The position numbers were made by a program, and so were the translations under genes. The notes under the pieces are model-generated. The model was not told the origin of the DNA and made no database searches. It saw nothing but the letters and a program-made list of their open reading frames with translations. DNA of 64,000 nt from Colletotrichum lupini (lineage: Eukaryota; Ascomycota; Sordariomycetes; Glomerellales; Glomerellaceae). Of the stretch, positions 1,986-33,352 are shown in pieces; position 1 is the stretch's first letter; each line of letters opens with the position of its first letter. Where the stretch lies: positions 5,518,001 to 5,582,000 of the forward strand of contig NC_064677.1 in the NCBI RefSeq assembly GCF_023278565.1, read 5' to 3'.

Positions 1986-3531
1986 ATGGCTCCTACCAGA
2001 GAAAGAAGATGGTGGACGAGCCAAGAAGATGACATACTCAAACGAGAGGTGCAGGGAAAAAGTACCAACCCCATCTCCCCCCTTGTTACGCGTGCTGCCA
2101 AATCTAACAAAGATCTCCATCTCCCAGTGCGCCAAGGCGGGAGCGTCCAAAACTGGAACGACATCGCCATGTCATTACCGGGCCGTACCAACAAGGACTG
2201 CCGCAAGCGGTGGGCAAAGATCCAAGTCGATATTCGAAAAGGTGCTTGGACACAAGAAGAAGACGAGAGGTTGCAGAAGGCCGTGGTGCAACTCGGGTGC
2301 AAGTTGGTTCACCCCACGCTTCCCTACTACCCATTTCTTGGGTCTCATCAATGCTAACCTCCACCCTTGTCATAGATGGTCACAAGTAGGGGCCATGGTT
2401 CAAAGTAGAAATGCCGACCGTAAGTAGAAGTCAGCGTCGTTAATATCCCACCATTGTTTCCCCTTCAGTGCTGAGGTGCATCCTTGCTGCAGAATGCGCG
2501 AAACGTTGGCAACATGTATTGGGACCCGACGTTAAGCATTGTTCATGGACCCCCGAGGAGGACAAGAAGTTGTTGGACGCGATGGGCAAGTTTGGAAACA
2601 ACTGGAAGCAGATTGGTCTTACCGAGCTGCCGGATCGTTCCACCCACGATCTACGCAACAGGCAAGTCGAAAAGTCTGAGCCATCTGCATGGATATACGG
2701 CTGACCATGGCTCACAGGAGTCTCATTCTCGGCCGCAGAAGTCGACATGCACAAGCTAATGACTCGAATTCCTCTTCACGGTCATTACCGGAGACCCATG
2801 ACGAGGAAATGGCCAGCAGTAGTCCTGACGTTAATGATGAGGACGAGAGTTGCGAGGGTGACGGTGACGACGGATTTGATGAAGGTTCCGAGTGCGAAAT
2901 GACCGACTCAAGCGGAAATCAGAAGCATCAGCTCGTGATGGACATGAGTCTCCTGTCCGAAGAACCAGTGGAGGCAACAGAACTCGGGCCCACGTCTACG
3001 ATCATACCAGACTACCGTCACTCAGACACATTCTTGGCAGTACCCGCTCTGGAGTTGCCAGGTACTACTTTCGACATGTTCGACCCGAGCTGCATAGGCA
3101 CCTCAGATCACTCATCGGGGAATTCGGCTATTCAAACTCCGGATAGCGATTGGATGTCTTGGCTCAATTCGCTTGAGAATGACACCTCAGTTTCGCTGGA
3201 ATCCCGGCCCTCATGGTGGGATGAAGGTCCCACTGATCAAAGTTACTTTCATGACTCCAGCTATGGAAGTTTTGATGTCAACACGGCTGGTATTTCGGAT
3301 ACTATTCATATCTCAAGAGCAAGGAAACGTGTCAAAGGCGAGGCTTCTCCAAGAGCTTCTCTCGGGTCAGTGACTCGCGCTGAGAACCCATCGAAGGACA
3401 ATGGACAGATGGGTCTTGTCACTTTGTCTCTGGACCAAGTAGACCCGATAATCGCCAACGAGATAATAGGAAGCGTCATGAAGCACAGCGCTGGTCTCAA
3501 GATCAACTGTACCGTCAATAATCACCCATAA
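1986..3531 (+). CDS. Three-repeat Myb-like DNA-binding transcription factor
   Basis: I model five exons: 1986-2061, 2128-2302, 2376-2419, 2493-2661 and 2718-3531, giving 425 residues. They join in phase to form three SANT/Myb repeats at about residues 8-54, 64-104 and 115-155. Each shows the spaced tryptophans (for example W9/W35/W54, W66/W85/W104, W117/W136) and the recognition-helix motifs [11 protein letters not shown] and RNADQCAKRW. No single frame holds all repeats, and the junctions restore the motifs exactly, which supports the splicing. Introns are 56-73 nt; the fourth uses a GC donor (AG|GCAAGT) with a CTGAC branch site. An acidic stretch follows near residues 187-207, and the rest is serine-rich and probably disordered. 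The protein should bind DNA in the nucleus. It lies just upstream, on the same strand, of the NRPS-like gene and may regulate it; that is inference. Confidence 0.88.
2662..2717 (+). other. GC-AG intron of the Myb gene
   Basis: The donor reads AG|GCAAGT, the usual context of the minor GC donor class. A CTGAC branch site lies near 2700-2704 and the acceptor is CACAG. Splicing here joins DLRN to RSLILGRR in frame. Read-through would stop the protein right after the third repeat. Confidence 0.7.
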
Positions 3532-3706
3532 GTCTCGAGTAGTGTATAATACGCATGTATATATATTTGTAGCGCGCATACGCGACTATATTGAATAGAT
3601 GAACTCATGACAACTCCTCATAGAAGGCAAATTAATGGCGTGACATATCTTTTTTATCTCTCGATACTACTAAAATAATATGCTATATCTTTGCACACAT
3701 GATCCT

Positions 3707-3722
3707 CAGCGCTTATACCTAT
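3707..3722 (+). repeat. Left terminal inverted repeat of the hAT element
   Basis: Sixteen bases beginning CAGCGCTTATACC, matching the inverted right end at 15 of 16 positions. It is preceded directly by the 8-bp duplication at 3699-3706. Confidence 0.85.
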
Positions 3723-3926
3723 TCAAATTAATCAAACAAATAAGTCAAATAAACAGTCAAATATAGGAATTTTAGCAAGTTAAATAATTAAATATCGTAA
3801 GGCCCTATATTTAACGTATTTAATTAAATATAAAGTCGCTTAAAAAAAAGAAAATCCGGGGCCGGGCTAATTAAAAATCGATATTCCTAACTATACCCTA
3901 TAAAAGTTTATAATTAAGAATATAAA

Positions 3927-4005
3927 TACTTAGAGCGGGATTCGAACCTACGACTCCTTATTTATAATTATAAGTTCGGTATTATACTACTTAACTAAAT
4001 AGATT
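3927..4005 (-). other. tRNA-derived (possibly SINE-like) remnant inside the hAT element
   Basis: On the minus strand this segment has an A-box-like TAGTTAAGTAG (3987-3997) followed at tRNA-like spacing by a perfect B box, GGTTCGAATCC (3938-3948). The anticodon region contains CTTATAA, but the anticodon stem and acceptor stem do not pair well. A T-rich tract (a possible Pol III stop) follows further down the minus strand. This looks like a decayed tRNA-derived sequence rather than a working tRNA. Whether it is a separate SINE insertion or part of the hAT element cannot be told from one copy. Confidence 0.4.
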
Positions 4006-4429
4006 ATTAATAATTATTATAAAAAAAAAAAAGCCCAAGTATTATAGAGCCCTGAATTTAGTATTTTATTATATTTAGGAATCTAAAAAACCTCTAATAC
4101 CCCCTTTTCTTAATATTAATAAAACTAGCGAAGTTACGTACTATTATTTCTAACCCTTTGCGACTATTATAATTATTATTAATATTAATTAAATTATATA
4201 TTAATCGATTTATTATATCGTAATTAATTAATTAGTAATAAGTCGTACGATCTTTAGTACGTAGTTACTATTTCGGATTACCTCGTAACTATAGACCCTA
4301 ATTAACGCTAGCTTTATATTATTAACTAATCTTAATAATCGTAATAGCCTCCTTACCCTTTTAAAAATAATTTTAAAAAAAGAGGACTTTTATTAATAAC
4401 GATTTAATATTATAAAAAGGCATAAGGCT

Positions 4430-6740
4430 AAGGAAGTCGTAGATCCGCTTAGAGGGGGTCTTTACTCGAGAGATTTATAATAAAAATATTTAAAATAAAA
4501 TCTTTTAGTTTCATTATTACTATAACGAAATAGGTATCGTTACTTATTTTAAAATAGTAATTACGAGCTTAGTAACGGCTTACTTAAAATTAAAATACTA
4601 AGTAATAAATCTAAGCTCTAGCGAGTCGTTATATTTATTAAAATCCTCTAAATACGACTTTATACTAAAAAAATAAAAACTTACCTCTAGTACTATTATA
4701 AAGGGCTAAGTAACGAGAATTAAGGAATTAGTAATCGGGTATATTATTAATAATAATAGCCTATTTATAACTTTTTATAATCCTTACCTCTGGGCCCTCC
4801 TCTATTAATTAGATTATAATATTACTAACGAACTCTTATTATTATATAGAAATATAAAAAAGGAGCTAAGTAAGATCTTCGCTAAGAAAAAAAAATATAA
4901 TTAGGGTAGAGATCCGGAGGTTAATAATAAAAGTCTACTTATTATTCAATCTATAGACCTTACTAATATAGAATACTATTATTACCGTCTTTACTTACTT
5001 TCTAAACTATACTAAGTAATAAATATAATACCTTATTACTCTATGATAATAGTATAGTACTTATAATAAGGCTAATATTACCTAGATTATAAAATTAGTA
5101 ATAAACGATTAAGAATTAGGTAACTAAGTCGGAGTAATTATTTATAATAATACTTTAAATAATAATACTTACCTAGGTTACTTATATCCTATATTATCTT
5201 ATACTTATACTTAAGAAGATATTCTTAACTAGAGAATAAGGTACTACGGTTATATTCTTAACCTCGTTAATAGGGCCTTTCTATTTAGTAATAATAAAAA
5301 GGTATTTAAATAAGAATTAGATATATTAATTAATACTAAGTAACTTTAAGAAAATCTTAACCTCTAGCGTATAAAGGGCCCTATTAATAAGCTTCGGAAC
5401 GTTATTAAATTTATTTACTTATTACTTTAACGATATAAAGCCTTCCTCGAGGTTAGTAATAAGACCGATAAGAACGATATATTTACTTTTTTTAAAAAGT
5501 CGTTATAAGAGCTTATACTAACGCTTAATAATAACATAAAATAGAATTTAATATACTTTATAATATAACGCTCTTTATAAAAAAAAAAGCAGATTTATAC
5601 TTTTTTAGTAACTAGTCGAGCTTATAAAGATCTAAAATAACGGATCCCTATTAAGGACGTTCTTAATAATAACGATTAATAACTACTAGTCGAGCTAAAA
5701 GTAATACTTAAGCTATTTTACTTTTAAATAATAAGATACTAGGGCTAGGGTAAAGGAGACGGTTATAGCTATTTATAAGAAGTAATAATAAGTCTTAAGT
5801 ACCTTATTAACCGTCTTAAGGAGTAAAAGAAGTTATATAATAAACCTTTTAAAAAAGAGATAGATCTTACGGTTTCTTAAATTATAGCGTTATAATTATA
5901 ATTAATATAAATAATACTACCTCGTTAATAGTTAGCTCGTTATTAATTTATATCCTAACCTCTTTTTTAACCTCTAACCTTAAGTAATATCCCTCGTTAT
6001 ATTTAGTCTAAGTATATACTTAGGGAGTAAGTAGAGCTACTTCTTAATAATAATTTTAACTCGTAAAGATACTTCTAACTATTAGTTATTAATACTTAAT
6101 AAGTCTTTAATAAGTATTATACTAAGTTAAGTAACTCTCCGCTCTATACTATAATAATTATTCTTTACCCTAAGTAAGGATTAAGATAGCTAAAAAAAAA
6201 GTAAGATATACCTAAGTAAAGCTATTAGCTATTTAATAAAAAAAAAGACTTTACGATTATTAATAAAAATAGTATATAAATAAGATAATAAGTCCTCCTC
6301 CTCCTTATTATCTAAGTCCTCCTCCTTTATTACAATAGTTATAAACTACTTTTAATACCCTTACGATTCTAAAGAGTATTATAAAAAACTCGTAGTATTA
6401 ATAATAGTTAATATCTTAAATAATAAACATAGTAATTAACTACGTGCCTAAGCTTAATTAATATTATTCACAAATTATCCCTTAGCTAGTCCTTAACCTA
6501 ATCTAATAATAAATTAACTATTAACCAACCTATTTAACGTTAAGTAAGCTTATACTTAATATTTTTATAATCCTTATAATAGTAATAGACTACGAAAGGA
6601 CATTTAGCCTCGCAAAATTAACTTTAACCTTATAGTAATTATTAATAAGATCCTTTATACTAAAGGAGGTCTAATATCTTAAAAACTAGCTTCGCAGCGG
6701 TACTATAGAAATAAGAAGTTAATTTTTTAATTAGAAAAGC
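4430..6740 (+). pseudogene. Degraded hAT transposase
   Basis: Plus-strand translation, ignoring the many stops, shows fragments resembling fungal hAT transposases. One block at about 5680-5800 has the spacing of the segment following the catalytic core (a leucine-rich stretch ending in an F-Y pair, then an R-Q-G-Q-like turn). Another at about 6128-6215 matches the segment containing S-P-L-Y. Frames are broken by in-frame TAA and TAG codons throughout, as expected from RIP. The edges are approximate and no product is possible from this copy. Confidence 0.65.
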
Positions 6741-6909
6741 TAATCGAGGTAAAGTCTATAAATTAGTACTATAAGGACTTTTGTAATAGCTTTATTTAAT
6801 TCCTAATTAAGAAATTAATCAAATCTATTAATTAATTATTAAATAATCAAATATGGCGCGAGAAATGAGCCAAATAATTAAATACGAACCTCATATTTAA
6901 TTTATTTAT

Positions 6910-6925
6910 ATAGGTATAAGCGCTA
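6910..6925 (-). repeat. Right terminal inverted repeat of the hAT element
   Basis: Inverted copy of the left end. The last base is A where the left end predicts G, a RIP-type transition. It is followed by the duplication at 6926-6933. Confidence 0.85.
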
Positions 6926-6933
6926 ATAATCCT

Positions 6934-7204
6934 CAATAGACATCGTCATAATTCTGGTCCAGGAATTTCAGCAAGGACCCGAGTTCTGCTACTTCTGCGC
7001 CCAGCGCAGTAGCCCGACTTAGGTCCAAGTACATCTGATTAGTTCAATCAAATGCCCTATTGTTTGCAGTGAGTGTGACAACAAATATCGAGTTGTTCTT
7101 GATGGTGCCACTGGCATACCACTTCAGAATACACGCGTTGGCTGCCACAATCCAAGTTATCCTATTCACCCATCTTCCCCTGTCATCCGGATACCTATGC
7201 GTCA
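6934..7204 (+). promoter_or_regulatory. Truncated upstream region of the NRPS-like gene
   Basis: Only 271 bp separate the hAT target duplication from the NRPS-like start codon. This sequence has normal composition, so RIP stops at the transposon border. No clear TATA box is seen. Removing the hAT element would leave about 0.45 kb between the Myb stop and this start codon. Confidence 0.5.
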
Positions 7205-10200
7205 ATGTCGTCTTTCAGAACGCCCAAGGTGAGCCTAGAGCCCGCTTCAACGTCCGGCCTGCGAACGCTTCCCGAATTGGTCGACTTCCACGCCAAAAGC
7301 AACCCCAAGCACCTATTTTGTCTCCAAGCCGACGCAAATGCGGCTGGAAATGGCCACAATTTTGTGCCCTTGAGCTATGAGACGCTACAGCGCGCCATCA
7401 TCCGCTGCCAGGCATGGCTCAAGGAACAGGCAACCAGTCTTCATGCACCGAAGACTGAAGCCGATGGTAGCGTGAATAAATGCGCCCCCGTCGCGGTGCT
7501 CATGGAGAGCCATGTTGGCTTGGTCATCTGTGTGCTCGCCTGTATGGGCATGGGCGTGCCAGTTGTCCTCCTGTCGGCGCGTCTGAGTGCGCCGTCCGCA
7601 CGACATCTTATCCGCGAAACGGGCGTGAAACTTGCTCTTGTGTCTCCGCGCCTATTGCCCCTTGCTTTCGAGGCAGTTGGTGCTGAAACTCAAGATGGAA
7701 AAGAGATCCCTGATGAGAGCACGATCATGATCCGCTCTGTATCCGGCTACGAGTCGTTCCTTGCAGATGAGCCCGCAGAAGACCAGAGTCACACCTTTCG
7801 CGCTGCCGATGCGGATCACTACGTTTCGGAAGATGATCGCCAGGTTCTCATCCTACATTCCTCAGGGACTTCGGGTCTCCCAAAGCCGATACCTTGCTCT
7901 CATAGATACTTTCTGAGCTACGCCACATGCCACAACTTCGAATCGACCAAAGAAGCTCATGGACTGACGGTCTCTACACTACCGTTCTTTCACGTAAGTT
8001 GACAGAAGAAACGAATCTATTTCCAGTGTCGCATCTGACCACAGAGGCAGGGTTTTGGCTTCGTATCCGTCTGCCTGTCCCTCAATATCGGCAAGACATT
8101 TTGCGCCCCTGTACCTTCCACCATCCCCAACGGTGCCAGCATCGCAGCCCTCATAGAGGACTCGCAAGCGAAGGCGTTATTGACAGTTCCGTCTATCTTG
8201 GAGGAAATTGAGGGCTTGCCAGGTGGCAGAGGACATGATATCCTTCGCAAGCTAGATTACGCGGGCTTCGGTGGCGGCAGACCCAAAACCTCGGTCGGCG
8301 AGAGACTTGAACGTTCGGGCGTGAGACTCGTCGGCCAGTACGGTGCGACAGAGACTGGTCCAATGACACCTTTTTTCGTGCCCGGCAAGGAACACGACTG
8401 GCGTCGACTGCGACTGCGTGCTGATATACTCGGACCGCTTCAAGTGAAGCTTGACCTCATCGATGCAGATGCAGAAGAGAGTGCGCAGACCGAATCCGAA
8501 GCAGAACGATCTTACAGCTACAAGCTGAGCATGAAGCCGTTTGGGTGGCAGGAGCGCTTCGAACTGCAGGATATAATCGTAGCACGCACGGAATGCGCCT
8601 CGGCCGATGACCTGGGACAGCTGGATTTTGTGATTACGGGCCGCAAAGACGACCTGATCTGTCTTGCCACCGGAGAGAAGGTGAGGCCAACGATATTGGA
8701 ATCCCTGCTCAGACAGCATGAGGACGTGAGAGACGCAACTGCTTTCGGTGAAGGACAATTCGAACTCGGTGTCATTGTAGAGCCTGTCAGACCCGTCGAA
8801 CCCAGCGAGATGGCCAACTTCAAGGCGTCGATCTGGCCGGCAATTGAGGAAGCAGGCCGTCAAATGGATGCTCATGCAAGAATTACATCGTCTACCGCGA
8901 TTCTCGTCGTCGCTCCCGAAGCGCTCCCGAGATCAGACAAGGGCACTGTTCTCCGGAGCGCAGTGTCAAGGAAGTTTGCCGATGAGATGGCGGCAGTCTA
9001 CTGTGATCTTGAGGCAAGCATGGTTGCACCACCAATCGACCTATCCTCGCCTGCGTCCAGTATCAGAAATCTCGTTACCCAGGACGTTCTGGGGTTAGAC
9101 AACGGCCGTGATTGGGAGGACGACGATGATTTCTTTTCAGGCGGCATGGATAGCCTTCAAGCGACGAGACTACGAAGACTGCTGACGGCTTCACTGCGCG
9201 CAACGTATGCCGCCTCTAAGCCTGAGACAGCCAACCTCCTCTCCGCGGACATGATTAAAGATGACATCGTCTACCGCAACCCTTCTGTGAATAAGCTGGT
9301 TGAGGCACTGATTCCCAGTTCGTCCAAGACAAATGGAGTCATTACCGAAACAAAGCTTATCGAACAGCTGGTAGACAAGTATTCCAGCAGAGGCATTCAC
9401 CGAGAGCAGCGAAAATCCGTGGTATTGCTCACAGGCGGCACTGGCAGTCTCGGGTCTTTCTTCGTTGGGCGGCTCCTTGCGGATGATAACGTGAGCAATG
9501 TCATTTGCTTGAATAGACCTAGAAAAGGAAACCCTACAGAAGCTCAGAAACATGCGGTAACGTTACGAAAAGTCTCTGTCGATGAGAACGCTTGGAAGAA
9601 GTTGCAAGTCCACGAAACAAATACTGCAGATCAGTGGCTCGGCTTGCCAGAGGCCGAGTACCTGCGTCTCGCGGCTGGGGTAACTCACATCGTACATATT
9701 GCGTGGCCCATGAACTTCAAAATGGGTCTGCAGTCGTTCGAGGCTTCATTCTCAAGCTTGCTGAACCTCATCCAGCTAGCGCGCCAAGCGAGCATTCACC
9801 GGGCACAGAAGCCAAAGCTGTTACTGGTATCCTCCATTTCTACGGTGGGGAACTATCCGTCAATCAAGGGACAGACTTTGATTCCCGAGACGTCTGTCGA
9901 GGATCAAAGCTGGACGCTAGATCTCGGCTATGCCAAAGCCAAGCTTGTCTGCGAGAAAATCATCGAACGCACAGCACAGGACCATCCTGAGATAGAGGCG
10001 GCGGTGGTCAGAGTCGGCCAGATTGCCGGCTCTACCACCGGCTACTGGAACGCTTCTGAGCACTTTGTAGCCCTTTGTGCTTCTTCTCAAAAGCTAGGGA
10101 AATTTCCCGACCTGCGTGGGGTAAGTCAAGATGTCAAAGAAAAGGGTTGGATTACGAGGCAGAAAAGGGGCCCTATTAGGTAGTTAGGTAGGGGTAGTAG

Positions 10201-13200
10201 GTAGGCAGTCTGGGCCCGTGCAGACGGACCCTTCCACCTACCTATACTTACTAAGGGACCGCGGGCTCTACCCACGATCTTCCCCTCCTATATATACGTA
10301 ATAGACCTATACTAACCTATTAACCTAGTTATAACTAAAAAGTCTAACCTACTTATATATATACTAATACTAATTAGTAATTAAATTATATATATATTTC
10401 TACTATAAGTTAGTAAGGATATAACTATAAAAGAGATAGCCTCGACCTATTTTACTAGCTATTCTAACTTATTAACTTAGTTCCGTTTATCTAACTAACG
10501 ATAAGTAGCTTAGTTTATATTACCTTAGCTCTCTTTTATTACTACTAGCTAATAACTAATTAACTAGTCGCGGGCCGTTAAAAGTACGCTTTATTATATA
10601 CGATCTCTTTTATTAAGACTACTACTATAAAAAGATTAACTATTTTACTATTATTATTAACCTCGCTTCTATTATTAATATTATTTTTACTAGCCTTATT
10701 ACTACTATTAACTTCTCTTTAATCGAACTACTTATAAAGGAATTTATTTTAAATATATTATAACTAAGTGCTATTTTAAACTAGTAATAAGTAAGAGGAG
10801 ATTAACTACTAAGAGATTAATTTAATAATTATTAGCGTACTAGTGCTTAATAATAATAAAACCTTTAGAATTATAAGTACGTTAATAGTAAATCTCTTAC
10901 TAATAGCGAAGTATTTTAAAATACTAAGGAAAGGAAACGATTTCGATAGTAATAATAATAGGGATTTATTTTATATTACTAATAAATCTACCTCTTTTTA
11001 ACTTAATAAAAGCTCCGAGACTAGACTAATAAAATAAAGTACGAGAAGTACTAAAAAGAATTACTAATTAGTAACTAACGGAATCTTCTATTTACTACTA
11101 GAAGTACGGTTATAAAAGGCCTTTTTTCTTTTTTTATAACTTTTTACTAACCTTAGTAACCTTTTATTTATATACCTCGTTAAAGGAGTAGAATTTTTTA
11201 ATTAGTAATAGTAGCCCGCTTATTATTATTAAAACGATTATTACGACCGACCTATTACTCTTTTTAACTTAATTAACGTTATATTATAATTATAATATAA
11301 TAATTATATTCTATAGTAATCTTTTATTATATAACTTACTTTATAAATATATTATAATAACTATTAGCCCTAGTAATAAGTAAGAAGGGTTTAATAATTA
11401 GTTAATATTACCTCCGGCCTATTTATATTTTTAAATTACGGAACTATACCTAATTCTAATTTATTAATAAGACTATATTAACCTAACTTAATAAGGCTTA
11501 TTTAATATTATACCCGCCCTTATAAATAATAAAAAGCTTAATACCTTTATCCTCTATATAATAAGATATTACTATCGAGACGGCCTAACGGGCGAGGAGC
11601 TATAAAAGGACTTTAAGACCGATTTCTAAAGCTAAGAGGTAGGGGACTTCTTAAGAGTAAAAAGTATAATTTTTAAAAAGCTAAGAGACTTTTTTATAAA
11701 TAATGGTATTAATTTAACGATTAAAGATCGTAGTTAAATAATAAAAAAAATTACTAACGCCCTTAATACTTAATACTTCTTTACTTAGATTTTTAAAGAG
11801 ATCGTAGCTTACTATAACCGTATTAAATATTTTAATATATTATATTATAATTTTTATTTCTTTTATTTACTACTCTCATAGTTAGTAAATACTAATAATC
11901 TTATTTAATAAGTTAAAAAGATAGTAAAGGAATCCTTATAACCCTAACTCGCTTAATTTTAATAATTAAGATTTTAACCTTAGCTTTATTATTAACTAAC
12001 CGACCTACTACTTTTTTAAGAAGAAGAGGAGGAAGAACTAGAAAATAAAGTTATTATTACTTAATAGCGAAATATACCCCGTTAAATACTATACTTTAAT
12101 ATAAAAACTAAAAACAATATTATGCCTAATACTTACTAATTAATTAACCTCGCTAAGCTTTATAATAATAAGAATAAGTATAGTAGTAAGAAGTATAATA
12201 TTTTTAATAAAAAGCTTCGGATTTTTAAAGTACTATACTAATAAGTAGGAATTAGTAAACAATACTATTTTAGTATTTTCCTAAATATGCTTAAAAGAAG
12301 GGCATTAACTTTTTATTTTAATTAACTTAGTAATATTTCTAACCTACTTAGCTTTAATATAATATACTAGAGGACTTAAGAATACTTCGAGCTACTTACG
12401 AGCTATTAAAACTACCTCGCTAAGTTCTATAACTTTTATTAGTACTCTATAGTTTGCGAGAACCTAAGTAAGTTAAACTAATAGATTTTATAAGCGCTAA
12501 TTAACCGTATTATAATCCTCTACGAGGCGCTAGCTACTTAGGGATTTATTTTTAATATAAGTAACTAACTCCTCTATTACGTAAGTAGTGTGTTAGAATA
12601 TAAACTTATTATACTTAACTTAGTACTTATATTTATTAATATTTACTACTAGCTTAGTACTTTAATTAATACTATAAAGAGAGAGCGTAACCGTAATAAA
12701 TAGTAGTATCTCTAAAATAGTACTTATAATAAAGAGGTCCCTACTACTTACTAAACCGACCGCACTTATAATAGCTCTAATAGAGAGACCCGATTTAATA
12801 AATAGAATTAACATAGCCGCGGTATTATTAATAAAAAGTATTTTATTTATTATAAAACCGGTTATTAGTTAACTAAGTACTTAAAAAAAGAGTAACGTTA
12901 GGTATATAAGAAGTATAAAAATAGTAAAGAAAGAAATAAGAGATTTATATTAAGCTTATACTTATAGTTCCTTACCTTTTATAAGGGAACTGCCCCTGTT
13001 AATAATAATAATAATAATATTATAATTTAATACTTTAATAGCCTCGACTTTAATTATAAGGATAACTATAAGAACGAAGTTTAGATCTTAATAATATACT
13101 TTATAATTACTATTAATAGTAGAACCCTTATAAATATCCTTACTACTTAAGTAATAGAGTATAGCCTTATTAATACTATTTTTATTAACGAGTTAACTAA

Positions 13201-16200
13201 GCCTACGGAATTAGCGACCTCTTTTTCGTTAAATAAGAAGTACTTATTAGGGGACTTTTAAAGTATTATACTTAATACTAGCGCTACGGAATTCTTAATT
13301 ACGGGCTATTTTTAACTCCTCGTATTATAATAATAACGACTTAAAATTATTTTTAATACCTCTAGAGCTAGTAAAGTAGGTATTCGATTTAATAATAGTA
13401 AACCCATAAGGTTATTAAAATCTACAGTTATTAGTACCCTATTTAATAATATTACTTTTTACGTCTTACTAACTAATACTCCTTTTTTATACTACCTAAG
13501 GGATATAGATAAGCTAGGAGTATACTTTAATAATATTAATAACTTACTAGTTAAAAGAGATATTATAATACTTATTATTTATAAATAGGGATACTCTTAG
13601 CTTTTGCTCTTCGATAATAAGAAAGCTATTACTAATTACTTAACGAAGGGTAAATTGCGCTACCTATATCGGCGCTTCGGCTATCTTTCGGTTCTTTATT
13701 TCTTAAAACTACTTTAGTAATTTAGTAACGATATAAAGATCGTAGCCCTTAAGAAGCTTACGAAAATCTATTAATAATACTAACTTAATATTACTACCCT
13801 TAGCTAATTTAAATTTACCCTACGAGATAATTATAATTTTAATTATAAAGTCGTAATTAATATAATATACTTAATAAATTATAAGGGCACTAATTAACTA
13901 GTACTTTACGTTATTAATATTACTACTTCTTTCTAAGTAGTAAGGTTCCTTGCGGATATAATTACGAAGTATATATAAAAAGCTTTTTAGTTATATTAGA
14001 TCGATATCTACCTCAGTCCGCTAAACTAGATTATTATAAATACTAATAAGAACTTTAGCGCTATAGAGTTTAAATCTTTTACTAAATCTATATTTATTAA
14101 GGTTAAGGAAGTACTTATCGAAGCTTATAATAATATTAATAAGGCTAAGAAATACTACATAGTATTTAAAAAGGTATATAATATTATTCAAAATAAGTGC
14201 TTATTAATAAGCGCGGAGGCTATACTTTAAGCCGTAATTAAGGTAGTTAATAATATAATTAGCTTAAATAGCCTCGTTCTTATATTCCTCGTTTTTAGAG
14301 CTTTTTTACGCACTTTTAATAAATCTCTACTATTACTAGATATTACTTAATGTATAAAAGTAGTTAAAAAAGTAATAAGGGAAGTCCGTAGACTTTATAT
14401 TAATAAGTAAGTAAGCGAAGTACTAGCTACTTAAAACGGACTAAATATTTCTTATATTATTAATTTATTACTATAGTTAGATATTAAAGTTTAGTAAAAA
14501 GGTAAGGGATAAAAAGGCCTATTTAAGCTCGTCTTAATAAATAGTACTACTTACGTAATAAAGTTACTTTATAGCTTAATAAGCTTTTAAGCTATTATAA
14601 TTAAACCCTAGTACTTAGAAGAGGTCGACCCCGAGCCGCTAGCTACGATAATAAAGTATATTAATTATTTATTAATCCCCGTAGTTAACTAACTAACTAA
14701 TAATAGCGCCGCTATAAATAAAGTCCTTAACGAGATCGTTATTATAATTAATAACGACCCTTTATTATAAAGTAAGAGGATTGAAAAAATATTAATATAG
14801 CGCGGCCGTAGTAATATTTTTATAATTATAACCTACTTTATATTTAAAAAAGAGGTAAATCTTAAGCTAGTTATTAAGCTCTATAATAAGGGTATTATTA
14901 CTACCCTAAGAGTACTTTTTATAGAATCTATTAATAAAGAGCTTTTAGGACTAGTAGAGAGAGGGGTAATTAAATTCGTTTAATTTAGCCCTAAATATAG
15001 GGATATAAGGATATTTAAGTCTCGATTTATTAACGAGATTAAGAACCTAGGACTTAACCTTATTAAAAAGCTTTATTTAGTTATATAAGAGTATAATAAT
15101 AAGGGAAAAAAGGAGATCTTTACGTAGTTACTGATAATTTAAAAAACTAGTTAACGTCTAATCCTTACCCTAGCCCCGACCCTAATTTAAAAAGGCTACG
15201 TCGTTTAGTTACGAAATATTATTTAAGTATATATATAATCGAGCTAACCTCTTTACTATAAGGTTTTTGCCTAATTACTAACTCGGATTTATTATTTATA
15301 CCCTAAGGGTACTATTTTATACGTTATATAGCTATTATATAGTCTTATAGAATTTAGTACTTATTAATAAGTAATATATAATAAGTATTATTTAAAAATA
15401 CTTTAAATAATAATATTTACGTTCGATTTATACTTACTAATTTCGATAAGAAAAAGCGGATTATTTAGTATTATTAATATATAAACCGATAATATTATTA
15501 AATTATTAAATAAGATTTTTAGTTAAAAGGAAAAAACCGAGCTTAAGCGCGCTAAGCTACTAGCTAAACTAAAGTAATAATTATTAACCGACGAGCCGCT
15601 TATTTTTAATAGCGGGATTATTTTATTAAAAGGTATTAATATAGTACTTAAATAGAAGAACTAAGGGAAAAAGCTTAAGTAAGTTAACCCCTCGGTATTA
15701 GATATTAAATAATAATTCGTTAAGTAGCGAGCTCGAGGTACTTATATTATATTAATTTACTAATTAAAAATAGCTTTTAATACGTCGTTTACTACTTAAT
15801 ACTAAGTAAATCCGTCGTTTACTAACTACGCTATACTAAACTATTATATTAAATAGTAAATAAAATACTTAGACCGAGGGCTTATATTTATATTATTAAA
15901 TCTAACTATAGCTAAACTCTTCGTTTTTATAAATAGGTTATTTATAAATAACGCTAATTATACTTTATAACTAGGTTATATTATTATTTTTATAAATAAA
16001 AAATAAACTAACGAGAGCTTTATAATTAATAGTAATATTATTTACTATAGCTCTATAAAGAGTAAAAGGATTACTTAGAGCGTATTAATATTAGAGGTCT
16101 ACGGAATAGTTATAAGCGTTAACGTTACTTATACTATCTTAATTACCCTAGACCTTATTACTAAATAACTTATCGTTCTAAAAATCCCTATTATAATCTA

Positions 16201-17519
16201 TATAGATTTATATTTATTATATAAATACCTCGTTAAGCTAAGTATTACGAAGGAAAAGCGCCTTATAATAAATATTATAGTACTTAGGTAATTATATAAA
16301 TACCACGAGCTTTATAAGATCCGTTAGATTAGTAATAATAATAACCTAGCTAATAAGTTTATAAAAAGCATACTAAATAAGTCCTTTAAACGATTCGTTA
16401 ATAAAGGAATTATTATAATTAAAATAAAAGGATAGGTAATACGTAGTTAAAATAGTAGTATATTATAAGTAGTAAATTATCTAGCGAACGTATACGCCTC
16501 TTAAGCTTTAGCTTAGAGAAAAACGTACGTATTCGGGGCGTAGTTAAACTAATAAAAAGCTCTTTTTTAACTATATTAAATTTAATAATTTCCGAGGAGT
16601 TTAGGTATATAGATTATATATATTAGAGGATTAGGAAGTAATTAGAAAGAGGGGATATTAAAATTTCTATATAAATAATTATAATAGAAGCTATATTAAA
16701 ATTTTAGTATACGGCTTTGGGTACTTCTAAATAGGGGATTAATTATAAATTCTATTATTAGTTCTTATTAACGGGGGACCTAGCCCCTATTCTAGCCTTT
16801 TTTATTATAAAAGTAGAAGACTACTAATGTTAAATTACGAGGTAAAAAAGGGGCCTTATTAAGTAGTTAGGTAGGGGTAGTAGGTAGGTAGTCTGGGCCC
16901 GTGTAAACGGACCCTTCTACTTACCTATACTTACTAAGGGACCGCGGGCTCTACCTACGATCTTCCCCTCTTATACACACGCAATAGACCTATACTGACC
17001 TATTAACCTAGTCGCGACCAAAAGGTCTGACCTGCTTACGTGTATACCAACAAAAAGGCTGTTCTGCTAGCTTGAACATTGGGGCAATTCCATTTTGCTA
17101 ATAAACTTTGCTAGACCTTGTCGTGGCTGCCGGTCGATATAGCTGCCGAAGCCCTCAGCGAGATTCTCTTCCATCAAGAACCACTCAGTGCAGTCTACCA
17201 TCTAGAGAACCCAGCCCGGCAGAGCTGGGAGGAAGTTGTCAGACTGATGTCTGAGGAACTACGGATAAGCAGGTCGTCCATCATCCCGCTCGAGGCCTGG
17301 CTCGACTTGGTCGATACTATACCGGAACCAGGCAACCCTGCTGCAGGTCTCACACGATTCCTTCGAGAGGATTTCGCCAAAATGTCGTGTGGATTTGTTG
17401 TCCTAGATACCAGCAATTCTCGCAATGTGAGTTCGACCTTGGCCAATATGACGTCGGTGGGGGAAAATTTGATCAGGGCATATGTCTCCTACTGGAAGAG
17501 TATCAAAACGTTGGCGTAG
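7205..17519 (+). CDS. NRPS-like carboxylate-activating reductase (A-T-R), with a retrotransposon in its second intron
   Basis: Exons are 7205-7993, 8051-10120 and 17115-17519, giving 1087 residues, a usual length for fungal adenylation-thiolation-reductase enzymes. The adenylation domain carries LHSSGTSGLPKP (near residue 217), GQYGATETGP (near 358) and ITGRKDDLI with TGEKV. The carrier domain has the phosphopantetheine-attachment motif GGMDSLQ (serine near 630). The reductase domain starts with TGGTGSLGSF (near 722) for NADPH binding and has the catalytic YAKAK (near 888); exon 3 completes it with SWLPVDIAAE. Such enzymes activate an acid as adenylate, load it on the carrier and release an aldehyde or alcohol. 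The first intron is 57 nt (CTGAC branch). The second (10121-17114) would be about 81 nt without the copia insertion. All exons are open, so the gene is intact if that intron is still spliced. The substrate is unknown. Confidence 0.87.
10145..10369 (+). repeat. 5' LTR of the intronic copia element
   Basis: Aligns with 16829-17052 over its whole length; differences are almost all transitions. The first ~100 bp keep GC-rich tracts such as GGGGCCC and CTGGGCCC, while the inner part is heavily converted to AT and ends CTAATA where the other copy has CCAACA. Confidence 0.85.
10370..16655 (+). pseudogene. Degraded copia Gag-Pol polyprotein
   Basis: Recognisable relics in order: a CCHC zinc-knuckle spacing at about 12839-12880, where the expected cysteine and histidine codons now read TAT or TAC; an aspartic-protease-like site near 13265-13310; a pre-integrase H-R-x-F-G-like motif near 13660-13700; an integrase core near 14020-14250; reverse transcriptase from about 14900 to 15600; and RNase H from about 15870 to 16430. 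Stops occur every few codons, so nothing can be made from it. The domain order places it in Ty1/copia. Confidence 0.75.
16829..17052 (+). repeat. 3' LTR of the intronic copia element
   Basis: Partner of 10145-10369. It starts TGTTAAATTACGAGG and ends CCAACA. Its last 80 bp, next to the host intron, are nearly free of RIP, the mirror image of the 5' copy. Confidence 0.85.
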
Positions 17520-17979
17520 ATACCTGACGGACCATTAGCTCTGGACTTATTGATATTTGGCGTTCTAAATGAGACCAAAAGCTTCATCATGTCTCGATCT
17601 CAGAATGCAGAACAGTACTATAGCTCGACTTGGTCATCTTGTTTTGGGCACTAGGTGTTTGCATGTTCAGTCTGATGAAATTAGACCATTAGCAGACAAT
17701 CCGGCTACCATATCACGTTCTGTCTCAAGTTTCTGCCCGGCGACCTCGACATGCTATTTGCCGTTGTACTGTGGGGGCACAACGACATCACAGAGATAGC
17801 GTCGTAGGTAGTCAGAGCAAGAGGAGGAAGAGGTCGCAATCCTGAGTGAACCAAATATTTATATTAGGTTTAGCCTGAGTTCCTTATACATAATTCCATA
17901 CCGCAAATATTTCTAGCCCTACGTGTCAGCCGATTTCAGTCATTTCAAATGTAGTTTAGGGAACCGTACCTTGCGGCTG
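17520..17979. other. Convergent intergenic region
   Basis: This 460-bp gap separates the 3' ends of the NRPS-like gene (plus) and the small secreted protein gene (minus). No gene or repeat is seen. Confidence 0.5.
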
Positions 17980-18236
17980 TTAAGGTGTAAGCGTGCAACC
18001 CAAGTCCTTATTGCATGTGTTCAAACACTTCTCAAAGACGGCATTGCTTCCTTTCCCAAAGAAGCAATCTTTGCGGCAAAGATCGCACTATAACATGTTG
18101 GTCAGCGTTTGCGTTAGAAAGGCAGGGGGCATAGCTAACGTACAGCTGTATTGGTTGTCTGGCGAATCTCGAGACTAGCAGGGCTGGCGAAGGCAACGCC
18201 TGCAAAGAGAGCAAAAATAATGGTAGACAGTTGCAT
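17980..18236 (-). CDS. Small secreted cysteine-rich protein (candidate effector)
   Basis: Two exons on the minus strand, 18236-18144 and 18087-17980, separated by a 56-nt intron with GTACGT donor, CTAAC/CTGAC branch candidates and TTATAG acceptor. They encode 66 residues. Residues 1-18 form a textbook signal peptide (basic-free start MQLSTIIFALF, hydrophobic core, AFAS end). The mature part has six cysteines at 32, 35, 39, 52, 56 and 62, spaced C-x2-C-x3-C-x12-C-x3-C-x5-C, probably forming three disulfides. All six lie in exon 2 and the intron falls directly before the first. I recognise no family. Size, secretion, paired cysteines and position between RIP-mutated blocks fit an effector-type protein of a plant- or host-associated fungus, but no function is shown. 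A TATA-like ATATAC lies at 18341-18346, about 105 bp upstream. Confidence 0.75.
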
Positions 18237-20414
18237 TTTGTAATGGTATAATATCTTCGGTCAACGAAAGATTTCGCAGCTTGGCAATAGTGGAGAATAA
18301 AAGAGAGAGTTGCTAACAACTTTGTTTAGAGAGTGAACAGATATACAGTGTTCCTTGAAGCTTGAGAGAGATTGAATGCGTAACTCATCTTGACTGGGTA
18401 TCCTGAGAGAACAATCCGGAAGTATTTAACTGAATACCTACATGGAGTTTTTGGCAGGGGCTCTTTCGACGTTTGTCTAGGTCTGGGTGGCCTGACTAGA
18501 TGTTCTGGACAGCTGACACAAACCTGACACAAGGCACGGTTGAGTCTCGGAAAGTGCCTGCCAAGGATCCAGCGAAATGATAGCATAACAGAGATGTTCT
18601 GGTGATCAAGTGGCCTACTTGGTACGCTGTAGTCCTGTTCTGTACGTGAAAACCCCCTTGTTTTCACGTTCCGGCACCATTGTCAAGACGAACTCTCGGC
18701 CATCACTGGTGGACCAGCACACTGGGTCACTGAGTCAGGTAGTTCATCCGGACAACGCGACAATCAGCAGGGCAAGAATAGAGTTTTTGTCAAGCATTTC
18801 AATAGCTCGGTTATCAAATTTGTGAGACAAAGAAGGAAGGCCTTGATGAAGAAATTCGGTCTGCCCCATCTCTCTTTACTTATTACTCGTAGGCTCAGGC
18901 CGTCCTTAGTCGAAATAACTTCGCATAGCAACATCATATTGATGTTGCATAGGTCCATAATCTCAACAATGCTCGTTTTCTTTTTCATTCGATTTTAAGA
19001 CCTCTCACTTCAACCCAGCCTCTTGCAATAAGAAGGCTAGGTAGTTGACGTGAGAGTCAAGAGCCCTCATGTATGAAGTACGTCAGTTTTCGTGATATCA
19101 AAGGAGCACGGCTTTTTTGCTCTCTTCAAAGGAACCCTTATTTCGGGCTGTAATGATAGCTCTCGAGATTCAATAAGGATTCGACCGGCAACTAATTACG
19201 CAATTGAATGTCTATCAACGCTGTATCTGCAATCATTCTTGATTACTCTCATACCGCATGACTCATAACTCACTTAAACCGTGCGGAATCTTAGTTTTCA
19301 AGACTCGGTCTCGCGGTTTCCTCAGCGTGAATGGCGACTATGCTTGAGCAATACGAATTGAATAGTCAATAGGTCCTAGGAACAATGCAGTGAGGAGGAT
19401 TGCACGTCATGACATTACTCGTACACCCACTAATTACACCGCCACAACAAGACAGAGCTTGACCTCAAACGTCAGGAAATGTTCAGTTCCGCCTGAAACC
19501 TTCCCCGGAAGCAATCAATTATCCGCCAAATATCGGAGACACCGGCAGCCCACCGGTAACCCACTAGCACGTTTGCTATAATCCCACCCTTCTGAGCAGA
19601 CATCAGCATCCAGAGAAGAAAAGTTTCCTGCGTGTCCCAAGTATCCGTAAGGTCAAGATGGACATATAACATCTATCACGGAACAAGGATGGTTTCAGCA
19701 CTCGTCAGGCAAGCTATCACGCGCTTTAACACGTGAATTCCATTCGCTTAGTACATAAACTATCATCTTTTCTTCGTTCTGGTTGGATTAATACCAGTTG
19801 CTTTCAATACCTTTATATACTCATTGCTGCGTGTCATCACCTGCCACAACATTTTGCCGGGTTCTACTTGCTGGTTAGTTACGAAGAAAACAGCGGTAAT
19901 GCTTCCTTGGTAAACACTAAACGGTGAGGCAGCCTAAGAGCTTGTCACTGACTGCCTGCAACGCTGCTGGCGACTGCATGATGTCTTGCCTCGACGAGAG
20001 AGGGATCCCGGGGAGTTAAGGTGAATTGAGCAATGACGATAGCAGATAAAGGAACTTCAGAGCCTTCTCCCCTAAGCTTAGCTCAAGGAAGAAAAGATGC
20101 ATGTTTCCACATGCTGCGTCTTACATATTGATGTGCTTGAGTAGCATGTTTCAGTCATAAATGATCGCACATTGAATGCGGCGCTTTGTGTTCGGCGATG
20201 TTAAAAGTCAAACATTAAAGCGAAGCCGTAGTAATAGCCGTAAACAATTACTCCTTAGGGTATATATACCAGATTTCTTCTCAATACTAACATTACACGG
20301 TCTTAGAACACATGCCTATATACTAACTAAGATCGGTGTTACTGTCCCTAATATATTACATAAGGTTCCTAGGAGCTTCTTTAAAACATCTTATTAAGTT
20401 ATCTTATTAAATAC
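18237..20414. other. Intergenic region before the nested transposon block
   Basis: About 2.2 kb with composition slightly AT-rich but not RIP-saturated. The first 200 bp are the presumed promoter and leader of the secreted-protein gene; they include a possible 20-codon upstream reading frame starting at about 18390 (minus). I found no other gene. From about 20200 the sequence grades into the AT-rich block. Confidence 0.45.
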
Positions 20415-20596
20415 TATTATAAAGTTATTATAAGAGTATCGACGTATATAAAAAGAACGGTTATTTATTAAAAATAAAAAATAAGTATAAAGCTTATTTT
20501 AATATAAAGGGTACGAGCGAAGTAAGCTTTAGTAATTATATAACCGAGGTTACGTAATATATAGTAAGGTTATAAATAGTTAAAGTTATTATAATA
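20415..20596 (-). repeat. LTR of the outer copia element (left, 3' LTR)
   Basis: 182 bp, colinear with 39769-39950 without gaps. The two copies differ only by transitions. It begins TATTATAAAG, consistent with a RIP-altered TG start. Confidence 0.85.
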
Positions 20597-20788
20597 TACC
20601 CCTCTAAATAAATATATATTTAAAAAAAGCGTACTTAATTACCCGTATTATTATAAAAAGGTTTATTAAAAGCGGAAAACTAAATATTACTATATAAGAA
20701 TTTATTTATAAAAAGAATTATAAAATAAATGAGTTTATATATAAAGTTATAAATAAGGGGTAAATTAGCTATAAATTAACCTTTATAT

Positions 20789-21891
20789 AGTGGTTTTTTT
20801 CTAGCTTTATAGGTATAAAAGATCGACCTTAACGGGATTACGCTTTTAAGAGAAATTATATAATACGGTATACTTTTTAATTATATAATACGCACAATAT
20901 ACCCTAAGCACGCGCTTAACGTAATATAATAATTTTAATATAAAAACCGCTATATAATTCGGGATAAGTAAGCTACTTTTTACGTAGTAGCGCTAGTTAA
21001 AAAGGTTAATAATAGAGGTTAGCTATAATAATTAGCTATAATAGTCGGCTATAATAGTTAGAAACAGCCTTCCTTAACTATAAAAGTTCTAAACTTTAAT
21101 AGCGACGTAGAGGTTTTTAAAGAAAGGGCCAAATAGGCTAATATTTACTACTTAGAGCTCGTAAAGATTCTTTTTATTCTTATTATTTCTAATATTGCCT
21201 AAAGCTACTCTCTATTTAAACTAAATAAATTTACTAAATAAATTTACTAAATAAACCTATTAATATATAAACTACTACCTTAATAAGAACTTACTTTTTT
21301 AGTATATAGTTAGTAATTAGTAGGCTAAAGATGCCCGTTAATAAGTCTACCTCTCTCGGGCTAAGTACCCTCTTTAACTAGCTCGATACTATAGTTATTA
21401 TAGTTAATATAAGTACGCCCGAGGATTAGTAAAGTACTTTTTAATAATACGGAATTTAGCTAGGTAATAGTACGAACGCTATAAATAGCCGGGTTAGTAT
21501 AGACGTTAAGATTTAATATATCAACGCTAACTTAAAAATTATATTTTATAAAGTTAGAAATCCCTTTAATACGGGCTATATTATAAATATAAGGGAATAT
21601 ATAAGGGGCCCCTTAACCTTTAATAAAAAAGAGTATATAATACGGGATTTAGCTACTTACGCGGGCTAGTAGTAAGAGGTTTTATATATATTAAAATAAA
21701 TATAGCTTACTTTTTAAATAGCTAGAACTTAGAGGACTACGGGGGAAGGTCGGGAGCTGTTAATAAAAGGAAAATAACGGTCGAGTTAGTTAACTATTTT
21801 AATTAGTAGTTAGGTATAGAGCGCAATATACTTAGTTTTCCCTAATACGTAATACATAGTACGGCCCCGGCGGATTACTCCGTCGGGGGGG
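20789..21891 (+). mobile_element. Family A element, copy 1 (unclassified, 1.1 kb)
   Basis: Starts AGTGGTTTTTTTC and ends GTCGGGGGGG. It is flanked by a 15-bp direct duplication, AATTAACCTTTATAT (20774-20788 and 21892-21906). No coding frame is evident. It contains a short tandem array of a GGCTATAATAGTT-like unit (about 21015-21062) and repeated AAATAAATTTACT units (about 21222-21262). The same 1.1-kb sequence occurs at 31469-32654 and, inverted and split, at 23691-34089. The duplication is too long for an LTR element, hAT or Tc1; non-autonomous non-LTR retroposition is one option. Confidence 0.8.
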
Positions 21892-21906
21892 AATTAACCT
21901 TTATAT

Positions 21907-23678
21907 TCGTTATTATAAATAATTTTAAAATTATATTATTAATAAAAAGTATAACTAAGGGACGGCTTTTTATTAACTAAATAATTAACTTACGGGTTAA
22001 GCGTAATAAATATAGAAATTTCTTATTACTATTTATAATACTAACTTTCCTTTCCTCTTTAACTTATATTTATATTATTATATATATATATCCTTACTTT
22101 TTATTTTTATACTTACGTTTTTATATATATATATCGTTAAGAAAAGATCTTTATTAATAATATCGTTTTTATTTAAATATTATCAAAACGATTCGCTAAA
22201 AACCGTATTTATATTATTATAATATAAGAAATTAAAAAGTATAAGTATAAAGTTATAGTTTTAAAAAAGAGTAATAGCTCCCCTAGCCCCCCTTATAAGC
22301 CTAAAATAAGTAAGTAATATTCCCTTATTTTATACTTTAGTTATAATACGGCCTCGTTTATTTAATATTAATTTAATTATTTTATTAAATAAGTAATAAC
22401 TTTATAACTAAATAAGTTATTTAAGAAAGTAATAAAAATAAAGAGGGTTTATAATCCCCTCTTTTACTCTTTTTTAAAAATTAAAAAGACGTCCTTATTT
22501 TTTAAAAAGACGGCGTAAGTAAAAAGGGTTTATAGCCCCTTCTCTTACCTTTTTTTAAATAAAAAAAAAGAAGAAAAAGAAAAAGACTTTTTTTAAAGGG
22601 ATTAAAAAAATAAAATAAGTTTATAGCCCCCTCCCTTACCTCCTTCTAGAAGGTATAAAATAATTAATTATATATATAATATTTTTTTAATTATTATTAT
22701 TTATAGAACTAATTCTTAATAATAGACTTTCTTAGTACTATTTTTAATATTAAGGTTTAATATAAGCTAGTACTTTTACTTCCCTTATTTAGTTATAAAT
22801 ACTTTAAATATATTAAGAGCGCTTTTAATAACCGTTCGGACGGTATATACTTCCCGGGTTTATATATTAATAATAAATATTAATATTATTAAATTTATAA
22901 AAAGTCGGGTTATACCCCTATTCTTAAAAAGTATATATAGTTCTTAAGTATAAAGTTCTTATATTTTAAGCGAGAGGTAATAAGAAAGTTAGTAATAGCT
23001 ATAGTTATTAATATAAAACTACTTATATTTTATAAAGTAAATTCTAAGCCGTTCTCGTTCTATTTATTATTTATAATTTAAAATATAAACCTTAACTTAT
23101 ATAATAATAATATTATATAAAGCCCTTAAGTATAATAGTTTTTTAAATAAAAATAAAAATAAGGGGGTTTATATAAACGAGGCTTTAATAAAAGAGGCGT
23201 TTATAAGCGCTCTTTTTATATTAAAAGCGTTATTAAAAAAACTTATTAAGGATATAACGGTATTAGCTACTTTATTTATAAAAATAAATAGTACTTAAAT
23301 CGGAATTAATATTCTTATTAATTTATATATCTTTCTAAGTATATAGCCCGTATTAAAGTCTTTTTTAAATAAATATGCGCTTACCTTTTTAAGTAAATAA
23401 CTTTTTTTTAAGTAACTTAACGGGGTTATTAGAGCGACTTTTATACTCCCTAGCTATAGGCTACGTTCTTTAATTAAAAACTGGGCCCCCTGGGCCGTTT
23501 TATTACTTTTTAAACGTCCCCTTATTTAGTATAATTATCTTTTATATATTTTTTATATTTAAAAATAATATAAAATACTTAAACTTCGTTTTAAAAAGGT
23601 TCTTTATAAAACCGTTAATTAGTATTTTATTTGTTAATATATAAACTATTTAAAATAAGCTACTTAAGTATTTTTATT
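21907..23678 (-). pseudogene. Outer copia element, 3' internal segment
   Basis: AT-saturated sequence between two family A insertions. By position it should hold the reverse-transcriptase end and RNase H of the outer copia element on the minus strand. I could not confirm individual motifs here. Confidence 0.45.
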
Positions 23679-23690
23679 ATAGCTATATAT

Positions 23691-24047
23691 CCCCCCTAAT
23701 AGAGCAATCCTCCGGGGCTGTACCGTATATTACGTATTAAAAAAAACTAAGTATATTGCGCTCTATACTTAACTACTAATTAAAACTCTTAACTTTCTTT
23801 TATAATCCTCTAAGTTCTAACTATTTAAAAGGCAAGCTATACTTATTTTAATATATATAAAACTTCTTAATACTAGCCTACGTAAATAGCTAAATCCTAT
23901 ATTATATACTCCTTTTTATTAAAGGTTAGGGGGCCCTTTATATATTTTTTTATATTTATAATATAGCCCGTATTAAAGGGATTTCTAGCTTTGTAAAGTA
24001 TAATTTCTAAGTTAATATTAATATATTAAATCTTAACGTCCGTATTA
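23691..24047 (-). mobile_element. Family A element, copy 2, first part (split by a gypsy insertion)
   Basis: Inverted match to 21500-21890 of copy 1, beginning CCCCCC as the inverted G-run. The left target duplication ATAGCTATATAT is at 23679-23690. The match stops exactly at the TATTA that flanks the Ty3/gypsy element; the remainder resumes at 33353. Confidence 0.8.
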
Positions 24048-24236
24048 TAAGAGATTAAGCTATAAGTACTTAACTAGCGAGGCTATAATATAAGTATAGG
24101 TATATTATAAAACTAAAGCTTATAAAGTCCTTTATAAGGGCTTTATGTTTTAAAAAGTTCTTTTATAATACGATCCGTATATTAATTACTAAGTTATTAG
24201 CGTCTTATTACTAACTATATCCCGAATTTATTATAA
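24048..24236 (-). repeat. LTR of the gypsy element (left)
   Basis: About 189 bp starting TAAGAGATTAAGC; matches 33158-33347 with differences almost all transitions. The last few bases are ambiguous. Confidence 0.8.
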
Positions 24237-29600: not shown

Positions 29601-29700
29601 CTATTTTACTTTATAAAGCTTATTTAGGAACTCGCTAATAAGCGGTAGTAAGTATTAATTCTTTATAATTACTTTATTTAGCCCATAGTAGTTTATATAA
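26700..29700 (-). pseudogene. Degraded gypsy RT-RNase H-integrase
   Basis: On the minus strand the reverse transcriptase relic lies near 29.2-29.6 kb and the integrase relic near 26.8-27.6 kb; RNase H is expected between them. Stop codons are dense and the edges are approximate. Confidence 0.6.
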
Positions 29701-32654: not shown

Positions 32655-33157
32655 GCTCGGTAAGTTATTAAATAAGCTCTTCGTATCGACGCCGTTTTTA
32701 GTTTTAATTTTTAATTATTATCTCTATTATTTTATAAAAATAAGTTATTATTAAGCTTATAAAGTTTCTTAAACTAGCTATTTTAATATTACCCGCGTTT
32801 TTATATATACCTTAACTTTATATATTTAGTAATTAGTTATTAATAAACGCCCCGTTTATAATAAATAGGGTCCTTAGGGTATTAATAAGGTAACTAACCT
32901 ATAAAAATAATCTACCCCGATTATTTTTTTTATCTAGCTCTTTTATAAACGTTAGTATTTAAATAAGACTCGCTTTATAATAAGCTCGTTTTTTTAAATA
33001 AAATAGGGTTAAGTAGTTAACTCTAAATAACTATAGCTCGTTAATATTAATGATTTTTTATTAATAACTAGGCGTTATTTTATTAACGTTCCGTTCGTTT
33101 TTATAATTTATTATTATTTATACTAATTATTTTATAAAAATAAAAGCTTTAAAATTA

Positions 33158-33347: not shown

Positions 33348-33352
33348 TATTA

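What the first reader, a model, noticed from the sequence alone, without database searches (positions are those of the whole stretch)
10121..17114. A 6.9-kb copia element sits inside an intron of an otherwise intact NRPS-like gene
Both splice sites, the branch site and the reading phase survive on either side, AAAAG flanks the insertion, and every exon is open with catalytic motifs kept. Fungal introns are rarely above a few hundred bases, so a 7-kb heterochromatin-prone intron raises a clear question: does the gene still make full-length enzyme, a truncated enzyme lacking the end of the reductase domain, or nothing? Open exons next to a long-RIPed element suggest ongoing selection or a recent change.
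Basis: partly seen in the sequence, partly recalled or inferred. Interest (0 to 1): 0.85.

Follow-up and report, generated by a model that had tools for sequence, protein, structure and literature searches.

The report
Dead retrotransposon inside a fungal intron
In a lupin-infecting fungus, a 6.9-kb mutated retrotransposon sits inside a normally tiny, ancient intron of an enzyme gene; the gene looks whole on paper, but a gene that the same transposon has plainly broken looks just as whole, so only RNA can tell whether full-length enzyme is still made.

Summary
In what is almost certainly Colletotrichum lupini IMI 504893, a 6,908-bp LTR element (10145-17052, 5-bp duplication AAAAG) lies in intron 2 (10121-17114) of a three-exon NRPS-like (A-T-R) gene. 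Donor, branch-like site, acceptor, phase 0 and all three frames survive. The empty intron is 81 nt: C. fioriniae models that read into this intron match the predicted join in length and frame, and their peptide after the insertion point has one match in the window, at 17055. The intron position is old: 55 of 56 scorable relatives read across the join or into a GT there.

The inference from open exons fails. Another copy (L042) interrupts an exon of an oxidoreductase, yet both halves stay open and 97% identical to C. fioriniae. RIP fades to about 2% in the outermost 30 nt of the LTRs of the sampled copies, so intact splice sites need no special cause.

Most likely transcripts end or stall just past exon 2, giving at best a 973-aa enzyme lacking about 38% of its reductase domain. 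Silence and full-length splicing are not excluded; RNA-seq of this strain is published. The copia class is plausible but Pfam did not confirm it.

The parts
7205..7993 (+). Exon 1 of the NRPS-like gene (263 aa, start of the adenylation domain)
   Evidence: AMP-binding 3.9e-19; 263 of 263 aligned residues identical to C. lupini P0006
7994..8050 (+). Intron 1, 57 nt, GTAAGT...GCAG
   Evidence: sequence; joined in orthologues
8051..10120 (+). Exon 2 (690 aa): end of adenylation domain, carrier domain, first part of the reductase domain
   Evidence: AMP-binding_C_3 2.6e-30, PP-binding 9.5e-5, NAD_binding_4 7.7e-26
10121..10144 (+). 5' half of intron 2 with donor GTAAGT; its last 5 nt are the target duplication AAAAG
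   Evidence: sequence
10145..17052 (+). LTR retrotransposon, 6,908 bp, heavily RIPed inside; probably in the gene's direction
   Evidence: LTR pair, TSD, RIP index 1.2 to 3.7 in 68 windows wholly inside; 79 places of the family, this one included. The direction rests on a + strand 83-codon frame shared by the copies and on recalled pol motifs
10145..10367 (+). 5' LTR; an unspliced reading stops here at 10181-10183
16828..17052 (+). 3' LTR
17053..17114 (+). Second copy of AAAAG (17053-17057) and 3' half of intron 2 with branch-like CTAAT and acceptor TAG
   Evidence: sequence; match to the C. fioriniae intron reading
17115..17519 (+). Exon 3 (134 aa + stop): last part of the reductase domain
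   Evidence: aligned; corresponds to about residues 263-401 of PDB 8aep_A; no Pfam family on its own

Best explanation
An LTR retrotransposon jumped into an ancient 81-nt intron of an NRPS-like reductase gene of C. lupini, probably in the gene's own direction, and was then mutated by RIP. Shown: the insertion, the empty site at protein level, intact splice signals and frames, and a nearly mutation-free rim at the element's ends. Inferred: a 7-kb AT-rich and probably heterochromatic intron is poorly crossed, so most transcripts that start end in or soon after the 5' LTR or keep the intron, giving at best a 973-aa enzyme (A and T domains plus about 62% of the R domain) that cannot release its product by reduction. 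Full-length mRNA would be rare.
For: Insertion and empty site. An unspliced reading stops at 10181-10183, 263+690+20 = 973 aa. Exon 3 holds about 139 of 367 aligned reductase residues. AATAAA/ATTAAA: 6.95 per kb in the element, 2 in 3,270 bp of exons. AT-rich sequence brings premature termination in Neurospora (PMC5869017, abstract and passages), and an intronic COPIA ends RPP7 transcripts at its 5' LTR in Arabidopsis (PMC7529245, passages). A second C. lupini annotation splits the gene into two models (P0006, P0128).
Against: No transcript data seen. The 5' LTR itself holds no AATAAA/ATTAAA; the first after the donor is at 10380, and the element holds no more of them, and no more splice-like sites, than shuffles of its composition. 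The donor and acceptor look strong. Direction of the element is inferred. The split model P0006 ends before the junction with a tail (VSD) not found at 9901-20300 of the window, so it is not proof of the insertion in that strain.
Confidence: 0.55

Rival explanations
1. The gene is silent: RIPed repeats about 265 bp upstream of the ATG and inside intron 2 make heterochromatin that shuts the promoter, so neither full-length nor truncated mRNA is made in most conditions.
For: AT-rich block at about 3.4-6.94 kb, 39 other places in the genome at 86-90% identity; a further AT-rich block at 20-40 kb.
Against: The gene body and its near flanks have normal GC; no expression data.
Confidence: 0.27
2. 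The 6,994-nt intron is transcribed and spliced well, and the full-length 1,087-aa enzyme is made.
For: Donor GTAAGT, branch-like CTAAT, TAG acceptor, phase 0 and open exons; 4 amino-acid differences from C. abscissum in 1,007, none of a C-to-T or G-to-A kind towards the window; heterochromatic TEs are carried inside transcribed genes in Arabidopsis (PMC4417168, abstract).
Against: Open exons are no evidence here (L042); relatives show introns of tens of nt at this place.
Confidence: 0.15
3. Assembly or prediction artefact: the element does not lie in this gene.
For: Repeats are a known source of assembly error.
Against: Exact target duplication, complete LTR pair, same layout in 10 of 10 other two-ended copies, and an empty-site peptide from C. 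fioriniae that matches the join.
Confidence: 0.02

Closest known systems
COPIA-R7 in intron 1 of Arabidopsis RPP7 (PMC7529245, passages)
   Same: An LTR element inside an intron of a gene; transcripts can end at the 5' LTR; the element is marked as silent chromatin (here only expected).
   Different: There regulation by H3K9me2 and EDM2 is shown; here nothing about transcripts or chromatin is known, the host is a fungus, and the element is mutated by RIP.
Intragenic heterochromatic TEs of Arabidopsis (PMC4417168, abstract)
   Same: TE mostly in introns; chromatin state matters for the host transcript.
   Different: Plant with long introns; most such TEs are short.
RIPed LTR retrotransposons of ascomycetes, with leakage in Cladosporium fulvum (PMC9453070, passages)
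   Same: TpA excess and loss of CpA/TpG in the repeat.
   Different: No leakage seen here: mutation fades inside the LTRs and 27 of 29 flanks have a negative RIP index.
NRPS-like A-T-R reductases of fungi
   Same: Domain order A, T, R by Pfam and R domain like PDB 8aep_A.
   Different: Product unknown; best paralogue in this genome is 31% identical.

Membership tests
LTR retrotransposon | pair of direct LTRs with TG...CA ends and a short target duplication | tested here: met
   first base of the 5' LTR is changed to G
LTR retrotransposon | primer binding site and polypurine tract | not tested
   not looked for; heavy RIP
Ty1/copia superfamily | pol with integrase before a copia-type reverse transcriptase (RVT_2) | tested here: inconclusive
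   RVT_2 did not call it among 53 matches in the genome, Pfam on pieces gave nothing credible, tblastn nothing; integrase- and RT-like words in frame 0 are recalled, not tested
RIP-mutated repeat | TpA excess and CpA/TpG loss in a repeat | tested here: met
NRPS-like A-T-R enzyme | adenylation, carrier and thioester reductase domains in that order | tested here: met
   exons searched apart; on the orthologue P0002
Regulated heterochromatic intron (RPP7/COPIA-R7 type) | LTR element within an intron with splice sites kept | tested here: met
Regulated heterochromatic intron (RPP7/COPIA-R7 type) | choice between full-length and LTR-terminated transcripts set by a chromatin reader | not testable with these tools
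   needs RNA and ChIP data

The most novel reading that the evidence does not exclude
A fungal heterochromatic intron that works as a switch: chromatin on the RIPed element decides whether polymerase ends near the 5' LTR (973-aa enzyme unable to release its product) or reads and splices across 7 kb (full-length reductase), as COPIA-R7 does for RPP7 in Arabidopsis, for instance when LTR-copia repression is slightly relaxed during infection (PMC11645255, section 2.6).
Probability: 0.06. Interest if true: 0.75.

Novelty: new member of a known kind. Interest (0 to 1): 0.4.

Why it matters
It is a clean natural experiment on whether a filamentous fungus with very short introns can transcribe and splice through a 7-kb RIPed element, and RNA-seq of what is probably this very strain is published. 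It is also a caution for genome mining: genes that look complete by their exons can be dead, and annotation may split them into two innocent-looking models. The fade of RIP inside the LTRs, seen in all the sampled LTR sets pooled, explains how such genes keep perfect splice sites without any selection for them.

Tried and rejected
Open exons as a sign of selection: rejected, because a copy lying in an exon (L042) leaves equally open and conserved halves.

A special barrier to RIP at this locus: rejected, since the spared rim appears across 15 5' LTRs and 14 3' LTRs, one of the latter a partial piece.

RIP creating an excess of cryptic splice sites or poly(A) hexamers beyond composition: not supported by 50 shuffles (donors 6 against 5.0 +- 2.4, branch plus acceptor 26 against 29.1 +- 5.2, AATAAA-like 48 against 41.1 +- 6.2).

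A 6-bp duplication (AAAAGG): rejected for 5 bp plus a first-base change.

Confirming the copia class failed. Proving the insertion in a second C. lupini strain is inconclusive. The RNA-seq paper PMC7589765 (passages only) showed nothing on this gene.

My first test that the L042 site is continuous in relatives used a loose motif (72 of 72); repeated with alignments, 61 of 71 relatives are ungapped over 24 residues around the site and the other 10 have a gap ending 11 residues before it, at the place of an intron, but none at the site.

Paper searches for a fungal precedent and on RIP at repeat edges or leakage listed no paper that by title or abstract opening describes an LTR element in an intron of a fungal gene; most listed papers were not opened, so this does not show that none exists. 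A precedent with Fot1 in niaD is recalled only.

Full report
What the window is. It is C4:5518001-5582000 of a 63,443,975-bp genome in 12 contigs. The gene's best relatives are proteins of the Colletotrichum acutatum complex. Exon 2 equals the C. lupini model P0006 at 591 of 592 aligned residues and exon 1 at 263 of 263; exon 2 differs from C. abscissum P0001 at 4 of 690. A 63.4-Mb long-read C. lupini assembly, IMI 504893 (lineage II-A), is described in PMC11645255 (abstract, Results parts 1-2 of 3, section 2.6 and methods part 1 of 2 read). That the window is this strain is inference.

The gene. Exon 1 7205-7993, intron 1 7994-8050, exon 2 8051-10120, intron 2 10121-17114, exon 3 17115-17519, 1,087 aa in all, as in C. 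acutatum P0002. Pfam on the exons apart finds AMP-binding, AMP-binding_C_3, PP-binding and NAD_binding_4: an A-T-R NRPS-like enzyme. The carrier serine (GMDSLQ) and the reductase GxxGxxG and YxxxK are visible in the translation; their naming is from memory. In this genome the exon 2 query has 14 matches, the best other one 31% identical, so there is no close paralogue among those scored. P0002 aligns with PDB 8aep_A over residues 35-401; the exon 2/3 join falls at about 260-262.

The element. LTRs at 10145-10367 and 16828-17052, duplication AAAAG, 6,908 bp, interior GC 0.23-0.27 in the kilobase windows 11001-16000, RIP index 1.2 to 3.7 in 68 windows wholly inside. The longest stop-to-stop frame of 80 codons or more listed inside it is 83 codons. 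That frame has 150 scored matches in the genome (of 751 candidates); I take the 79 with 72% identity or more, this one included, as the family; their open frames are 86 codons or less. The class is plausibly Ty1/copia but not confirmed, and the direction (along the gene) rests on the + strand frame and recalled motifs.

The empty site. Of 129 proteins hold the motif KFPxxLxG just before the join. 22 of the 56 continue T[LF]SW, as the join predicts; 33 continue with V, 28 of them VS, as a GT read through would give; 1 does neither (the 73 without the motif were not counted). So the intron is old and fixed in place. C. fioriniae P0003 and P0004 read into it and give VSSDSRLKAVPPA*; the window's intron halves give VSQDVKEKAVLLA*. 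The part after the insertion point matches only at 17055 in the whole window.

Does openness mean function? 17 of 19 have a recognisable LTR and 10 have both, one with a partial 3' LTR. L042 lies in an exon of a Gfo/Idh/MocA oxidoreductase, between AMRE and IIGMP. Its pieces are open and identical to C. fioriniae P0130 at 217 of 224 and 135 of 139 residues. Of the 71 other relatives of 340 aa or more among the 120 listed, 61 align ungapped over 24 residues around the site and the other 10 are ungapped at the site itself. L039 abuts an open MFS frame (Pfam 9e-14 in the 97 codons that touch the element). L035 abuts a 403-codon ankyrin frame and is probably an exon insertion too. The other 14 were not shown to lie in coding exons; not all were examined closely. 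So exons beside these elements can stay open in a gene that cannot work as annotated, and openness says little.

Why the splice sites survive. At LTR sites where copies differ by transitions, the mutated base holds 2 of 105 cells in the outermost 30 nt of 5' LTRs and 54 of 86 in the innermost; in 3' LTRs 2 of 84 and 50 of 89 (15 and 14 LTRs, the window's included; sites were chosen because both bases occur at least 3 times). Flanks of up to 500 nt have a negative RIP index in 27 of 29 cases, the window's two included; the exceptions are L032 (0.08) and L045 (0.20), and L036 has AT-rich DNA further out. The donor and acceptor thus lie outside the reach of RIP. Leakage into single-copy DNA is reported in Cladosporium fulvum (PMC9453070, passages).

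Age. RIP needs a sexual cycle (established knowledge) and C. lupini is described as clonal (PMC11645255), so insertion and mutation probably predate the clonal lineages. The LTR pair shows one transversion in 223 positions. A second C. lupini annotation splits the gene in two (P0006, 858 aa; P0128, 100 aa; both with longest contig 834,083). That fits a shared insertion, but P0006 ends before the junction with a tail that the window does not hold at 9901-20300, so it stays open. That this is strain CBS 109225 is a guess.

Likely effect. An unspliced reading stops at 10181-10183: 263 + 690 + 20 = 973 aa (one search printed 265 and 975 because it took exon 1 to 7999; the exon ends at 7993). The element holds 48 AATAAA/ATTAAA hexamers, no more than its composition predicts but 6.95 per kb against 2 in 3,270 bp of exons; none lies in the 5' LTR, and the first after the donor is at 10380. 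In Neurospora AT-rich coding sequence causes premature termination (PMC5869017, abstract and passages). In Arabidopsis an intronic COPIA ends RPP7 transcripts at the 5' LTR (PMC7529245, passages). I rank truncation or scarcity first, silence second and efficient splicing third; no transcript data were seen.

Noticed in passing
window 3400-6940: A second AT-rich repeat ends about 265 bp upstream of the ATG; window 4200-6900 has 39 other places in the genome at 86-90% identity, so the gene is boxed in by two RIPed repeats.
   Followed up: partly
window 20000-40000: A 20-kb block with GC about 0.18-0.29.
   Followed up: no
L031-L048 LTRs and window 10145-10367, 16828-17052: RIP fades within about 200 bp of the element's ends, so 5' LTRs resemble each other and 3' LTRs each other more than the two LTRs of one copy do.
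   Followed up: partly
L042, L039, L035: Copies of the same family next to or within coding frames: a Gfo/Idh/MocA oxidoreductase (exon), an MFS transporter (frame touches the element), an ankyrin protein (probably exon).
   Followed up: partly
G000, 53 places: A different copia family with RVT_2: 20 of 53 matches lie in an uninterrupted 1,438-codon frame and are nearly identical in score, so it looks young.
   Followed up: no
window 17429-17785: C. abscissum P0001 and C. lupini P0128 are modelled with an extra splice near 17429 and another C terminus; the unspliced end at 17519 agrees with C. acutatum and others in the alignment.
   Followed up: partly
P0003, P0004, P0010, P0047: Public gene models end in, or keep, this same intron in C. 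fioriniae, Monosporascus and Penicillium salamii; it may be a hard intron for predictors or truly retained.
   Followed up: no
window 1971-2357: Myb-like DNA-binding ORF upstream (Pfam 1.2e-14).
   Followed up: no
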